Shown: positions 1,911 through 34,393 of the stretch, piece after piece
Layout of the letters: the number at the start of each line of letters is the position of its first letter
Position numbering within the stretch: the first letter of the stretch is position 1
Assembly (NCBI RefSeq): GCF_900155365.1
Contig: NZ_LT699742.1
Span: forward strand, 229,975 to 270,995
DNA from: Collinsella bouchesdurhonensis
GTDB lineage: Bacteria > Actinomycetota > Coriobacteriia > Coriobacteriales > Coriobacteriaceae
Direction: 5' to 3'
DNA: 41,021 nucleotides
Position numbers and translations under genes: made by a program
Notes under the pieces: generated by a model
What the model was told of the DNA's origin: nothing
Database searches by the model: none
The model's input: only the letters and a program-made list of their open reading frames with translations

Positions 1911-1930
1911 CTAAGGCTACCGGCTCTGCT

Positions 1931-1971
1931 CTATTCCTCAAAACTGAATAATTTTCGTTTTTGAGGAATAG
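1931..1971. repeat. ATPase-associated palindrome, copy 1
   Basis: Arms CTATTCCTCAAAA (1931-1943) and TTTTGAGGAATAG (1959-1971) are perfect inverted repeats of 13 bp around a 15-nt AT-rich centre (CTGAATAATTTTCGT). Copies 2 and 3 at 2015 and 3289 have the same arms, the same 15-nt spacing and related centres. Confidence 0.9.
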
Positions 1972-2014
1972 ACTCGAGGCGAGACATCTTTCAACAGGGT
2001 ATATTGGCAGCAAG

Positions 2015-2057
2015 GTTATTCCTCAAAACTGAAAAATTATTAATTTTGAGGAATAAC
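2015..2057. repeat. ATPase-associated palindrome, copy 2 (just upstream of the ATPase RBS)
   Basis: Arms GTTATTCCTCAAAA (2015-2028) and TTTTGAGGAATAAC (2044-2057) are 14-bp perfect inverted repeats around a 15-nt centre CTGAAAAATTATTAA. It ends 13 nt before the AGGAGG of the ATPase gene, a position expected for an operator or a folded 5' leader. Confidence 0.9.
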
Positions 2058-2082
2058 GGTAGGTGCCCAAAGGAGGATGCCG

Positions 2083-3279
2083 ATGAAACTCATCAATAGA
2101 GCGTCGTATATGGATACCCTGACGAGTCTTATCGGCGTGCCGGATATCAAGGTCATTACGGGCATTCGCCGGAGTGGAAAATCGAAACTGCTCGAGTCTC
2201 TTCGCGATTTCATAGAGGCGACTCTACCTGACTCGAACGTGATTCAGATCAATTACAACCTCGATGAGTTCGAGGGACTGCTTGAGTATCATGAGCTGCT
2301 CGCTTATGTAAAAGAGCGCCGGAGGGAAGGCGCGCAGAACTTTCTGCTTATCGATGAAGTGCAGATGTGCGAGGGTTTCGAACGAGCAATCAATAGTCTC
2401 CATGCCTCTGAGCAATACGACATATTTATTACTGGATCGAACGCGTTCTTGCTGTCGAGCGACCTGTCGACGCTCTTTACGGGGCGGACATTCGAAATTG
2501 AGGTCTTCCCGTTCTCGTTTGAGGAATACCGCCTTTATAACGATGGAGGCGAGGCTGATCGCGACTTCGATGAGTATGCCCATATTGGTGGGATGTCCGG
2601 TTCCTATCCCTACCACAAGCAAGAGCAGCGCTACCAGTATCTTTCTACAGTTTTCAAGACGCTGATCGTGAGGGATATTGTACAGCGGCACAGCGTGAGG
2701 AACGAATCGGCGCTGCTGCGTATTGCCGATTACATGATGGATAACGTTTCCAACATCACGTCGGCTCGCAACATTACGGATGCCTTAAATGCGGATGGGC
2801 TAAAGATCACGAACAAGACGGTTGGCACGTATATGGGGTATCTGTGCGATGCATTCGCCTTCTATAAGGTGCGCCGGTACGACATTCGTGGCAAAAAATA
2901 TCTCAAGAGCGGTGAGAAGTATTATTTGGCAGACCATGCGTTTAAGTATGCGCTGCTCGGCACGCGCGATATGGACTGGGGACGCGTGTACGAGAACATG
3001 GTAGCTATCGAACTGTTGCGTCGCGGATACGAGGTATACGTTGGCGTTCTCTATAAGAAGGAAATTGATTTTATAGCGATCAAACGAAGCGAAAAGCTCT
3101 ATATCCAAGTTAGCGACGATATCAGCTCGGAAAAGACGTTTGAGAGGGAAATCTCGCCACTTCTTAAGATAGGCGACGCGTATCCCAAGATGATTCTGGC
3201 TCGCACGCATCACGAGACAACGGACCGTGACGGGGTGCAGATTGTGGACCTGGCGAGGTGGTTGTGCGGCGAGGCATAG
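2083..3279 (+). CDS. AAA-family ATPase with DUF4143 C-terminal domain
   Basis: The 398-aa protein belongs to the AAA_14 plus DUF4143 family, which is abundant in gut bacteria and archaea and has no established cellular role. Walker A is GIRRSGKS at about residues 27-34, Walker B is FLLIDEVQ near 88-95, and a sensor-like FITGSNA follows, then the family-typical FPFSFEEY. The C-terminal third carries the nuclease-fold-like DUF4143 region (VYENMVAIELLRRGYEVYVG, EIDFIA, KLYIQVS). The position where PD-(D/E)XK enzymes have E-x-K reads IQV, suggesting no nuclease activity. The ATG at 2083 is preferred because AGGAGG (2071-2076) lies 6 nt before it, whereas the in-frame ATG at 2077 abuts that motif. 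The gene is visibly more A/T-rich than its neighbours and is bracketed by three matching palindromes, which suggests acquisition as a unit. Confidence 0.88.
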   Translation: MKLINRASYMDTLTSLIGVPDIKVITGIRRSGKSKLLESLRDFIEATLPDSNVIQINYNLDEFEGLLEYHELLAYVKERRREGAQNFLLIDEVQMCEGFERAINSLHASEQYDIFITGSNAFLLSSDLSTLFTGRTFEIEVFPFSFEEYRLYNDGGEADRDFDEYAHIGGMSGSYPYHKQEQRYQYLSTVFKTLIVRDIVQRHSVRNESALLRIADYMMDNVSNITSARNITDALNADGLKITNKTVGTYMGYLCDAFAFYKVRRYDIRGKKYLKSGEKYYLADHAFKYALLGTRDMDWGRVYENMVAIELLRRGYEVYVGVLYKKEIDFIAIKRSEKLYIQVSDDISSEKTFEREISPLLKIGDAYPKMILARTHHETTDRDGVQIVDLARWLCGEA

Positions 3280-3288
3280 CAAAAAAGC

Positions 3289-3329
3289 CTATTCCTCAAA
3301 ATTGAAAATAATTCGTTTTTGAGGAATAG
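3289..3329. repeat. ATPase-associated palindrome, copy 3 (downstream of the ATPase)
   Basis: Arms CTATTCCTCAAAA (3289-3301) and TTTTGAGGAATAG (3317-3329) are identical to copy 1, again with a 15-nt centre (TTGAAAATAATTCGT). It begins 9 nt after the ATPase stop codon. Flanking AAGCC and AAGGCTTT could extend pairing outward, so a terminator role is possible but not clear. Confidence 0.9.
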
Positions 3330-3435: not shown

Positions 3436-4542
3436 ATGACTAACGAAGCGAATCCGGCAAGCCTGCAGGCATGGAGCGTTGCAAATACCTTATCCGAGAA
3501 AGTGCTCGCTCAAGACAAGAATGGGGTTTGGTCTCCTGCGTGCGTCGCGAGCCTGCTGACGATTGTGCGAAAGGGTGCCTCGGGCGCCACGCGTAGGGAG
3601 CTCGACATGCTCCTGGGCGGTGGCGACATGTTTGGCGAGCGAGATCCCTTTGGCATCGAGCGGGAGCGGAACTGGGGTTATGACGGTTATGATGCGAGCT
3701 CAGCAACGGCAGCTTGGCTCTCTAAGTCCGCGAACCCATCAGAGGCGTTTCTGCACGAGTGCGACAGATGCGGCGTGCATGTCTCAATCGATGACTTGGC
3801 CGATCCGTGCGTTGGCCAACGGGTGACCGATTGGATAGCCGAACAAACTCACGGCCTGTTGTCGCCAGGCATCGAGCTATCGCCAGTGGCTCTTGCCTGT
3901 CTTGTGAGCGCGCTTTACATGAAGGATGCATGGGCGGATCCGTTTGACGGCGAATCGACCAAAGTCGAGAACTTCCATGCAAAGGACGGCGATATTCAAA
4001 CAGCGTTTATGCACGGCAAGCGCGATTGTGCGGTAATTGTCGAGAACGGCAGCGTTGCCTTCTCGTTGCCCCTCAGCTCCGATGCCGGCATGTGTTTTGT
4101 TCTTCCGAGCGGCGAGGATGGTCATGTTGATGACGCGCTTGGGCTATTCGAGCGTCTGTCCCAAGGCGAGGGAGAATGGGGGCCCGTCGACCTGGGGATT
4201 CCTCGCTTTGAATGTGAGTCGACGCTCTCGGATGTCTGCTCGCTGCTAAAGGCCGCTGGCATCTCTGCGGCAACTGCGATGGAGCTTGCACCCATGGTGG
4301 GAGTAGAGGGAACTCCAACGCAGATTGTCCATGGCGCGAAGTTTGCCGTCGATGAGAACGGCGTAGAGGCCGGCGCATACACGGCGATGGTCGCTGTCGC
4401 GGGCCTTCCGCCGGAGAATCCGCCAGAGCCGCGCAAGATAACGCTTGACAGGCCTTTTTATGCAGCGCTCATGTCTCGCGCCGGCGTACCGCTCTTTGTG
4501 GCAAACGCCGCGCTACCGTCGGTGGACGTGCAAGAAAGGTGA
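3436..4542 (+). CDS. Serpin family serine protease inhibitor
   Basis: Serpins inhibit serine or cysteine proteases by a suicide mechanism in which the cleaved reactive-centre loop inserts into a beta-sheet. The 368-aa product has full serpin length. It opens with NTLSEKVLAQDKNGVWSPA and later shows the hinge VDENGVEAGAYTAMVA, the small-residue stretch that lets the loop insert. The C-terminal serpin signature follows (LDRPFYAALMSRAGVPLFVA). The region after the hinge (GLPPENPPEPRK) should hold the scissile bond, but P1 cannot be fixed by eye. No signal peptide is evident, so it appears cytoplasmic. The start at 3436 has a G-rich site just upstream, and the extra 39 upstream codons look non-coding. 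It is probably co-transcribed with the next gene (26 bp gap). Confidence 0.88.
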   Translation: MTNEANPASLQAWSVANTLSEKVLAQDKNGVWSPACVASLLTIVRKGASGATRRELDMLLGGGDMFGERDPFGIERERNWGYDGYDASSATAAWLSKSANPSEAFLHECDRCGVHVSIDDLADPCVGQRVTDWIAEQTHGLLSPGIELSPVALACLVSALYMKDAWADPFDGESTKVENFHAKDGDIQTAFMHGKRDCAVIVENGSVAFSLPLSSDAGMCFVLPSGEDGHVDDALGLFERLSQGEGEWGPVDLGIPRFECESTLSDVCSLLKAAGISAATAMELAPMVGVEGTPTQIVHGAKFAVDENGVEAGAYTAMVAVAGLPPENPPEPRKITLDRPFYAALMSRAGVPLFVANAALPSVDVQER

Positions 4543-34208: not shown

Positions 34209-34258
34209 ACCGGGCGCCGCAGCGGGGCGCCGGCGCGCAGCGGCGGCGGAGTCCCTCA

Positions 34259-34294
34259 ATGTGACAAAACAAGACAGAGGACTTTTTGTCACAT
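34259..34294. repeat. TGTGACAAAA palindrome, copy 1
   Basis: ATGTGACAAAA (34259-34269) and TTTTGTCACAT (34284-34294) form a perfect 11-bp inverted repeat with a 14-nt centre CAAGACAGAGGACT. Confidence 0.9.
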
Positions 34295-34357
34295 CGTGGG
34301 TCTGGATAAGAAAGCAGGCCAGAACCAACATGGGCTCTGACCTGCATTTTTCATAAA

Positions 34358-34393
34358 ATGTGACAAAATAAACCTGTCGACTTTTTGTCACGT
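34358..34393. repeat. TGTGACAAAA palindrome, copy 2
   Basis: ATGTGACAAAA (34358-34368) and TTTTGTCACGT (34383-34393) pair over 11 bp with one G-T, again with a 14-nt centre (TAAACCTGTCGACT). It ends 4 bp before the stop codon of the minus-strand gene, so it could serve as that gene's terminator (arms end in T-runs on both strands). Confidence 0.85.

What the first reader, a model, noticed from the sequence alone, without database searches (positions are those of the whole stretch)
1931..3329. Three matching palindromes bracket an AAA/DUF4143 ATPase
Copies at 1931, 2015 and 3289 share 13-bp arms (TATTCCTCAAAA core), an invariant 15-nt centre and similar centre sequence. Two lie upstream and one directly downstream of the gene. 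This is too regular for chance. They could be an autoregulatory operator set, recognition sites for the ATPase itself, or the ends of a small mobile unit. The gene is visibly A/T-rich relative to its surroundings. I know of no described function linking this ATPase family to such sites.
Basis: partly seen in the sequence, partly recalled or inferred. Interest (0 to 1): 0.65.

Follow-up and report, generated by a model that had tools for sequence, protein, structure and literature searches.

The report
ATPase gene bracketed by private palindromes
A gut bacterium's gene for an uncharacterised but very common candidate phage-defence ATPase carries its own private DNA palindromes, two around its promoter and one behind it, which look like self-control switches and also mark a spot where neighbouring DNA differs in every combination between strains.

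Summary
Three near-identical palindromes (1930-1972, 2015-2057, 3289-3329) bracket one AAA_14/DUF4143 gene, a strong match to candidate phage-defence family PDC-S01. They occur nowhere else in this Collinsella assembly. The layout is conserved in 11 of 11 modules examined: P1-P2 85-86 bp apart around an invariant TATATT, P2 28 bp before the ATG, P3 core 10-14 bp after the stop (10 of 10 measured). A Bacteroidota relative (39% identity) has the same arms just upstream. Other PDC-S01 genes have palindromes of different sequence: 88 of 121 distinct upstream regions, against 7 of 45 ordinary genes, with an excess of -10 hexamers. Best reading: autoregulatory operator, probably bound by the ATPase itself, which has a predicted winged helix; binding is untested. 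The property is not exclusive: Fic_N-type Fic genes show it in 15 of 15. At the birA-coaX site 22 related genomes have the full module (9), one palindrome (7), a pair (1) or none (5), with flank types reshuffled across it, so it is also a recombination joint. Mobility driven by the ATPase is unproven.

The parts
1930..1972 (.). Palindrome P1 (upstream operator candidate)
   Evidence: present in 11 of 11 modules (the G003 copy has one arm mismatch)
2000..2005 (+). TATATT, invariant -10-like hexamer between P1 and P2; no recognisable -35 (the consensus scan does not list it)
   Evidence: invariant in 11 of 11 modules; not listed
2015..2057 (.). Palindrome P2, begins 9-10 bp after the TATATT, about at the expected transcript start (inferred)
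2072..2076 (+). Ribosome-binding site GGAGG
   Evidence: sequence
2083..3279 (+). PDC-S01 ATPase (AAA_14 + DUF4143), 398 aa from ATG 2083 (alternative ATG 2077)
   Evidence: start supported by relatives (ATGAAACTC)
2764..2850 (+). Predicted helices 228-237 and 244-256, read by me as the helix-turn-helix of a winged-helix domain
   Evidence: AlphaFold2 model, mean pLDDT 91.8; fold matches
2977..3165 (+). PD-(D/E)XK-like C-terminal part: E304, E327-x-D329, Q342 invariant in 44 aligned sequences; usual catalytic Lys replaced by Ser (Q-V-S) in the window protein
   Evidence: the motif assignment is my reading; PMC12988326 calls the family's domain so (passages)
3289..3329 (.). Palindrome P3, 9 bp after the stop codon

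Best explanation
The palindromes are DNA dyads, operator sites through which this single-gene PDC-S01 module controls its own transcription. P1 and P2 lie on either side of the promoter's TATATT, 85-86 bp (about eight helical turns) apart, so a protein dimer on P2 would block the transcript start, and joint binding of P1 and P2 (possibly P3) could loop the promoter. The binder is most likely the ATPase itself through its winged-helix domain, as it is the only gene between P1 and P3. Shown: anatomy, conservation, promoter-like hexamer between the sites, and the family-wide association of gene-specific upstream palindromes. Inferred: protein binding, repression, and that signal-driven ATP binding relieves it. 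At the birA-coaX site the same palindromes are also joints of recombination, which can remove the gene and leave one or two palindromes (inferred from the states, not observed).
For: (1) Fixed geometry in 11 of 11 modules, invariant TATATT between P1 and P2. (2) 88 of 121 distinct upstream regions of PDC-S01 relatives (genus, order and one Bacteroidota locus) hold a palindrome at p<=0.05, against 32 of 120 downstream regions and 7 of 45 ordinary Collinsella genes (Fisher 6e-13 and 3e-11). (3) Separate sample from viral contigs: 16 of 41 upstream against 1 of 42 control genes. (4) -10-like hexamers in or near the palindromes in 56 of 88; 25.3 +- 3.7 in shuffles. (5) G-T is 24 of 94 mismatches inside the stems: no strong wobble preference, which favours DNA over RNA (no formal expectation computed). 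(6) In 84,980 species the arm pattern gave 17 stretches outside Collinsella; one of them, in a Bacteroidia bacterium, ends 37 bp before the ATG of a PDC-S01 gene. (7) Of the ORFs of 100 aa or more between P1 and P3 only the ATPase has a Pfam match; the three overlapping ones have none. (8) The predicted fold is closest to SSO1545-type archaeal ATPases and, less closely, Orc1/Cdc6. (9) Fic genes as a second family: Fic_N-type 15 of 15 with palindrome, others 4 of 13 (split made after seeing the data).
Against: Palindrome similarity does not follow winged-helix similarity beyond overall protein similarity (partial Mantel r = -0.03, p = 0.76; window scan inconclusive). No -35 found. In the viral-contig sample downstream palindromes are as common as upstream ones (14 against 16 of 41; p = 0.82). 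Plasmid relatives: 4 of 9 upstream at p<=0.05, 2 of 9 downstream. 33 of 121 upstream regions do not reach p<=0.05. P3 is not explained by simple repression. Solo palindromes in genomes without a close relative of this ATPase keep perfect arms, which an operator of a lost gene should not. The DNA-bound Orc1/Cdc6 matches fit poorly (rmsd 8.4 and 10.4).
Confidence: 0.62

Rival explanations
1. Small mobile or homing unit: the palindrome is the recognition site at which the ATPase-nuclease (or a host enzyme) promotes insertion, excision or exchange; P1 and P3 are its ends and a solo palindrome is the target or the scar.
For: Among 22 close relatives the birA-coaX gap holds the full module (9), one palindrome (7), a pair 85 bp apart (1) or none (5), intermixed on a coaX tree with few supported branches. 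Left flank types L0, L1 and right flank types R1, R2, R3 occur in all 6 combinations. In G000 the module is on the other side of coaX and a tRNA, and its protein is 92-93% identical to theirs while coaX is about 75%. Extra ectopic copy in G003 (L144).
Against: No transposase domain. A downstream copy of the upstream arm in only 8 of 88 family members (3 with shuffled arms, a strict test that misses the window's own P3); a looser test gives 13 of 88 against a shuffled mean of 6 and maximum of 13. The usual PD-(D/E)XK lysine is absent. No empty-site comparison: none found for the G003 copy, not sought for G000. Since the flank types are not alike, the palindrome and module are the only sequence shared there, so ordinary recombination would also break there.
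Confidence: 0.2
2. RNA hairpins: P2 forms a 5'-end and P3 a 3'-end hairpin that stabilise or terminate the message.
For: P2 would start about at the transcript start and the P3 core lies 10-14 bp after the stop; in some relatives an arm covers the ribosome-binding site (L043, L099 by eye).
Against: P1 lies upstream of the TATATT; -10-like hexamers are over-represented in or beside the family's palindromes; no clear wobble preference; P3 lacks a T run and is not listed as a terminator; in the Bacteroidota homologue the palindrome precedes a -7-like box (sequence; the box is recalled knowledge).
Confidence: 0.1
3. Operator of a host regulator, not of the ATPase.
For: Solo palindromes keep 22 of 22 arm positions in 7 genomes where no close relative of this ATPase was found, while 27% of coaX third positions vary among them.
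Against: No other site in the G000 assembly; 25 of 43 genus genomes have none at 3 mismatches; the same palindrome stands before a homologue in Bacteroidota.
Confidence: 0.08

Closest known systems
PDC-S01, PADLOC phage defence candidate (AAA_14 + DUF4143)
   Same: Profile PDLC04787, E = 8e-146 over residues 3-398 of the 400-aa reading; single gene; ATPase fused to a PD-(D/E)XK-like part, as described in PMC12988326 (passages)
   Different: In the passages read no palindromes are mentioned, and validation of most such candidates is called pending. Here: an operator set, one of three palindromes downstream, and a recombination joint
Autoregulated repressors of defence islands, e.g. RptR (PMC12255303, passages)
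   Same: Palindromic sites overlapping the -10 box of the own promoter
   Different: RptR is a dedicated repressor with 6-bp palindromes; here the only gene of the module is the presumed effector ATPase, with 41-bp palindromes
Archaeal AAA+ ATPases PABY2304 (2qen), SSO1545 (2fna) and Orc1/Cdc6
   Same: Predicted fold: 2qen Z 17.2, rmsd 3.2, 262 aligned; 2fna Z 16.8, 3.5, 265; 1w5t (Orc2) Z 13.1, 4.8, 263; 2qby Z 14.0 but rmsd 10.4
   Different: At most 18% identity; match ends near residue 293; Orc1/Cdc6 binds origin repeats (titles); no regulatory role known to me for 2fna/2qen
Fic genes with Fic_N domain (SoFic-like; name by recall)
   Same: Own upstream palindrome in 15 of 15
   Different: Different enzyme; no flanking copies or recombination states examined

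Membership tests
PDC-S01 (PADLOC) | Match to a PDC-S01 profile over the whole protein | tested here: met
   E = 8e-146
PDC-S01 (PADLOC) | PD-(D/E)XK nuclease part | tested here: inconclusive
   E304, E327-x-D329, Q342 invariant in 44 sequences, usual Lys absent in the window protein
PDC-S01 (PADLOC) | Anti-phage activity | not testable with these tools
   Validation of most such candidates pending according to PMC12988326 (passages)
Autoregulatory operator | Dyads at the gene's own promoter, conserved position | tested here: met
   the promoter itself is inferred from an invariant TATATT
Autoregulatory operator | Protein with DNA-binding domain encoded by the module | tested here: inconclusive
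   Winged-helix-like helices in the model; no covariation of that part with the palindrome
Autoregulatory operator | Binding and repression | not testable with these tools
   bench assay needed
Insertion sequence / transposon | Transposase gene | tested here: not met
   ATPase gene gives AAA_14 and DUF4143 only; the three overlapping ORFs of 100 aa or more between P1 and P3 have no Pfam match
Insertion sequence / transposon | Target-site duplication | tested here: inconclusive
   No shared direct repeat seen outside P1 and P3 (by eye), but the palindrome itself could be the duplicated target
REP/RAYT | Y1 tyrosine transposase beside REP palindromes | tested here: not met
   no such domain among the ORFs between P1 and P3 or in the five neighbouring genes scanned

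The most novel reading that the evidence does not exclude
PDC-S01 ATPases each own a private palindrome that serves both as operator and as a recombination or homing site: the ATPase-nuclease recognises it on DNA, silences itself there, and when activated opens or cuts it, which spreads, removes or relocates the gene and leaves solo palindromes that stay usable as landing sites.
Probability: 0.18. Interest if true: 0.85.

Novelty: new variant of a known kind. Interest (0 to 1): 0.6.

Why it matters
PDC-S01 is reported as the fourth most common defence across prokaryotes (29,494 bacterial and 9,986 archaeal copies), with validation pending for most candidates of this class (PMC12988326, passages). 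A gene-specific palindrome before most members tested here gives a concrete ligand to test: it says where the protein may bind and how it may be kept silent, and it supplies a DNA probe for biochemistry. That Fic_N-type Fic genes show the same layout suggests that single-gene systems with a helix-turn-helix commonly carry their own switch. The solo, pair and full states offer a natural series for asking whether the site is also a recombination target.

Tried and rejected
Chance: rejected (no other site in the assembly at 3 mismatches; 17 non-Collinsella stretches in 84,980 species).

Winged-helix specificity code: suggested by eye (window and Bacteroidota L132 share SARN/NKTV and the palindrome), not supported by partial Mantel or window scan.

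Exclusiveness to PDC-S01: rejected. Fic 19 of 29 and AAA_21 4 of 11 distinct usable upstream regions also have palindromes; together 23 of 40, not clearly different from 88 of 121 (p = 0.08). One Fic row (L385) proved a wrong frame and was dropped afterwards (19 of 28), one (L400) had too little upstream DNA. Of 30 AAA_21 loci 16 were given, 4 were not usable and 1 was a near-duplicate. Five of the 15 Fic_N assignments (L378, L379, L386, L390, L407) are under Pfam's own cut-off.

Downstream copies as a family feature: 8 of 88 against 3 with shuffled arms; a looser test gives 13 of 88 against a shuffled mean of 6 and maximum of 13. Not shown.

Rows of the main count: 146 loci given; 8 near-identical modules (L024-L031) and 7 partial or weak ones (L115-L121) were left out beforehand; 1 was too short upstream and 24 were near-duplicates. 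Further hits listed were not fetched. An earlier count with 60 shuffles on 59 genus loci, not dereplicated, gave 41 upstream and 23 downstream. Viral set: 64 loci returned, 62 given, 61 usable, 41 distinct. Plasmids: 9 of 229 records read.

First structure model (6 sequences, pLDDT 52.8) discarded. Ectopic region of G003 matched no other genome beyond the palindrome. No palindrome with these arms in viral contigs. The fold comparison barely tests the C-terminal part. Sequence search of solved structures: nothing convincing. NCBIfam: none for the window protein.

Literature: DUF4143 in 1 paper (passages), PDC-S01 in 3 (passages of two), COG1373 with ATPase in 6 (listing only), PADLOC candidates in 4 (passages of one), guilt-by-embedding in 4 (passages of one more). 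None linking the family to palindromes was seen in these listings and passages. Searches gave nothing relevant; one search was ill-posed (whole-word setting).

Full report
WHAT IS THERE. The window is part of a Collinsella genome (G000, 1.88 Mb, 15 contigs; genus inferred from relatives whose contigs are named). Palindromes P1 (1930-1972), P2 (2015-2057) and P3 (3289-3329) share identical 11-bp arms ATTCCTCAAAA/TTTTGAGGAAT around a variable, A/T-rich 15-nt centre. They bracket a 398-aa gene (2083-3279) with AAA_14 and DUF4143 domains, which matches the PADLOC profile of phage defence candidate PDC-S01 at E = 8e-146. Three overlapping ORFs of 100 aa or more in the same interval have no Pfam match. 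It is the only DUF4143 gene found in the genome, and no other copy of the palindrome was found there at up to 3 mismatches.

CONSERVATION IN THE GENUS. 18 of 43 genomes carry the exact-arm palindrome. Ten have the three-copy module (in G003 one copy has a mismatch); an eleventh, strain D40t1, was found by the species-wide scan. In all 11 modules P1 and P2 are 85 (G000) or 86 bp (the other ten) apart, P2 ends 28 bp before the ATG, and an invariant TATATT lies between P1 and P2; the ATTCC core of P3 starts 10-14 bp after the stop in the 10 where it was measured. No -35 consensus was found. The ATPase protein is 92-93% identical between G000 and the others, while coaX is about 75% and birA about 40%, so the module has moved between lineages. 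Against G020 the gene differs in 148 codons synonymously and 28 non-synonymously, that is, it is under purifying constraint. In G020 the neighbouring serpin (88%) also follows P3.

ONE SITE, FOUR STATES. In the relatives the module sits between the convergent genes birA and coaX: coaX is next to it in all 9 (with the serpin between in G020) and birA is seen in 8 of 9 (the G003 contig ends first). In G000 the module lies beyond coaX and a tRNA-Met. Among the 22 genomes of the close group the gap holds the full module in 9, one palindrome in 7, two palindromes 85 bp apart without the gene in 1 (G031), and none in 5; these states are intermixed on a coaX tree in which few branches are well supported. 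A pair and a solo are what recombination between P2 and P3, or P1 and P3, would leave. The flanks fit: of the types found among 20 genomes, two left types (L0, L1) and three right types (R1-R3) occur in all six combinations; three further types (R0, L2, L3) are confined to one to three genomes. The types differ right up to the palindrome. This is recombination, but not necessarily site-specific, since only the palindrome and module are shared between flank types. In the 3 genomes with a 145-bp gap the junction looks like a deletion between GGGGAATGGG and GAGGAATAGG (by eye). The seven solos show 0 of 22 variable arm positions, while 27% of coaX third positions vary in the same genomes; the rough chance of this under neutrality is 0.001 at the third-position rate and 0.08 at the overall rate. 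So solo palindromes may be maintained, corrected or young. In these genomes the nearest relatives of the ATPase are 40% identical or less, or none was found (G032 is only 72% complete). G003 also has an ectopic copy near a dnaB-like gene, in a stretch that matched no other genome of 43 beyond the palindrome itself.

A FAMILY PROPERTY. Homologues do not share this sequence but mostly have palindromes of their own right upstream. The formal test took 146 loci of PDC-S01 relatives from the genus, the order (81 of 120 genomes have one at E<=1e-60) and one Bacteroidota locus; 121 had distinct upstream DNA. The best palindrome in 150 bp beats dinucleotide shuffles at p<=0.05 in 88 of 121 upstream regions, 32 of 120 downstream regions and 7 of 45 ordinary genes of Collinsella. 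56 of the 88 have a -10-like hexamer in or near the palindrome; 25.3 +- 3.7 expected from shuffles. Typical forms are an arm ending in AAAA, a 15-17-nt A/T-rich centre and the mirror image, or two palindromes on either side of a -10-like hexamer (L108, L113). Relatives on viral contigs, a separate and more diverse set, give 16 of 41 upstream against 1 of 42 control genes, but also 14 of 41 downstream. Plasmid relatives give 4 of 9 upstream and 2 of 9 downstream.

THE SAME PALINDROME IN ANOTHER PHYLUM. A scan of 84,980 species for the arms with a 10-20-nt centre gave 34 stretches: 17 in Collinsella and 17 elsewhere. Of the 17, one (L132, a Bacteroidia bacterium) has the palindrome 37 bp before the ATG of a PDC-S01 gene 39% identical to the window's; in the other 16 no ATPase of this family was found in the stretch held. 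Such a coincidence is very unlikely for a random site (my estimate, below 1 in 1,000; not computed).

THE PROTEIN. With 44 sequences AlphaFold2 gives mean pLDDT 91.8. Nearest solved folds are the archaeal ATPases PABY2304 (Z 17.2, rmsd 3.2, 262 aligned) and SSO1545 (Z 16.8, 3.5, 265), then STAND NTPases (plant NLRs Z about 15, CED-4 14.7, the bacterial EfAvs5 12.9) and Orc1/Cdc6 (Z 12.5-14, the DNA-bound ones with rmsd 8-10), mostly over residues 1-300. I read helices 228-237 and 244-256 as the winged helix's helix-turn-helix. The C-terminal part has E304, E327-x-D329 and Q342 invariant, a PD-(D/E)XK-like pattern without the usual lysine in the window protein, so cutting activity is open.

MECHANISM. 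I conclude that the palindromes are operators of the gene itself. Steps shown: position at a promoter-like hexamer, fixed geometry, family-wide association, transfer together with the gene. Steps inferred: a dimer of the ATPase binds each palindrome through the winged helix, shuts the promoter, and is released on activation. Against it: palindrome similarity does not track winged-helix similarity once overall similarity is allowed for; the test is noisy, because sites of very different layout were compared.

NOT UNIQUE. As a control I took two other families from the same order. AAA_21 gave 4 of 11 and Fic 19 of 29. Within Fic it is the Fic_N-Fic type (15 of 15) against 4 of 13 others (the split was made after seeing the data, and five Fic_N matches are under Pfam's cut-off); 8 of the 15 show a weak C-terminal helix-turn-helix match. 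This supports the operator reading in general but means PDC-S01 is not special in having a private palindrome.

WHAT IS KNOWN. PDC-S01 is listed as the fourth most common defence across prokaryotes (29,494 bacterial and 9,986 archaeal copies), found by guilt-by-embedding, with an ATPase fused to a PD-(D/E)XK-like domain; for most such candidates validation is pending (PMC12988326, passages). It is the most frequent single locus in a rumen survey (PMC13356809, passages). Palindromic sites over the own -10 are known for the dedicated repressor RptR (PMC12255303, passages). No paper linking DUF4143 or PDC-S01 to palindromes was seen in the listings and passages; the library holds open-licence papers only.

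Noticed in passing
window 34258-34292 and 34357-34391: 35-nt repeat AATGTGACAAAA...TTTTTGTCAC twice, behind a tRNA-Leu; a similar TGTGACAAAGGGAC palindrome stands on both sides of another PDC-S01 gene (L047), so it may be a dispersed intergenic palindrome family.
   Followed up: no
window 3436-4542: Bacterial serpin gene next to the module; an 88% identical serpin follows P3 also in G020 at a different place relative to coaX, so ATPase and serpin may travel together.
   Followed up: partly
L075, L076, L077, L079: birA-coaX gap: Other Collinsella carry a different repeat there (around GGGACAGGCACTTTT), so this gap may collect repeats.
   Followed up: no
L378-L407: Fic genes of the Fic_N type in the order have palindromes of their own upstream (15 of 15), e.g. 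GGAAGTGAATTTGAATTCACTTCC before L386.
   Followed up: partly
L144 6135-6171: Ectopic solo palindrome in C. aerofaciens D31t1, about 450 bp upstream of a dnaB-like gene (by its translation).
   Followed up: partly
G072: One genome of the order has 9 matches to PDC-S01 at E<=1e-60; those read have different palindromes (L189, L195, L214, L227).
   Followed up: no
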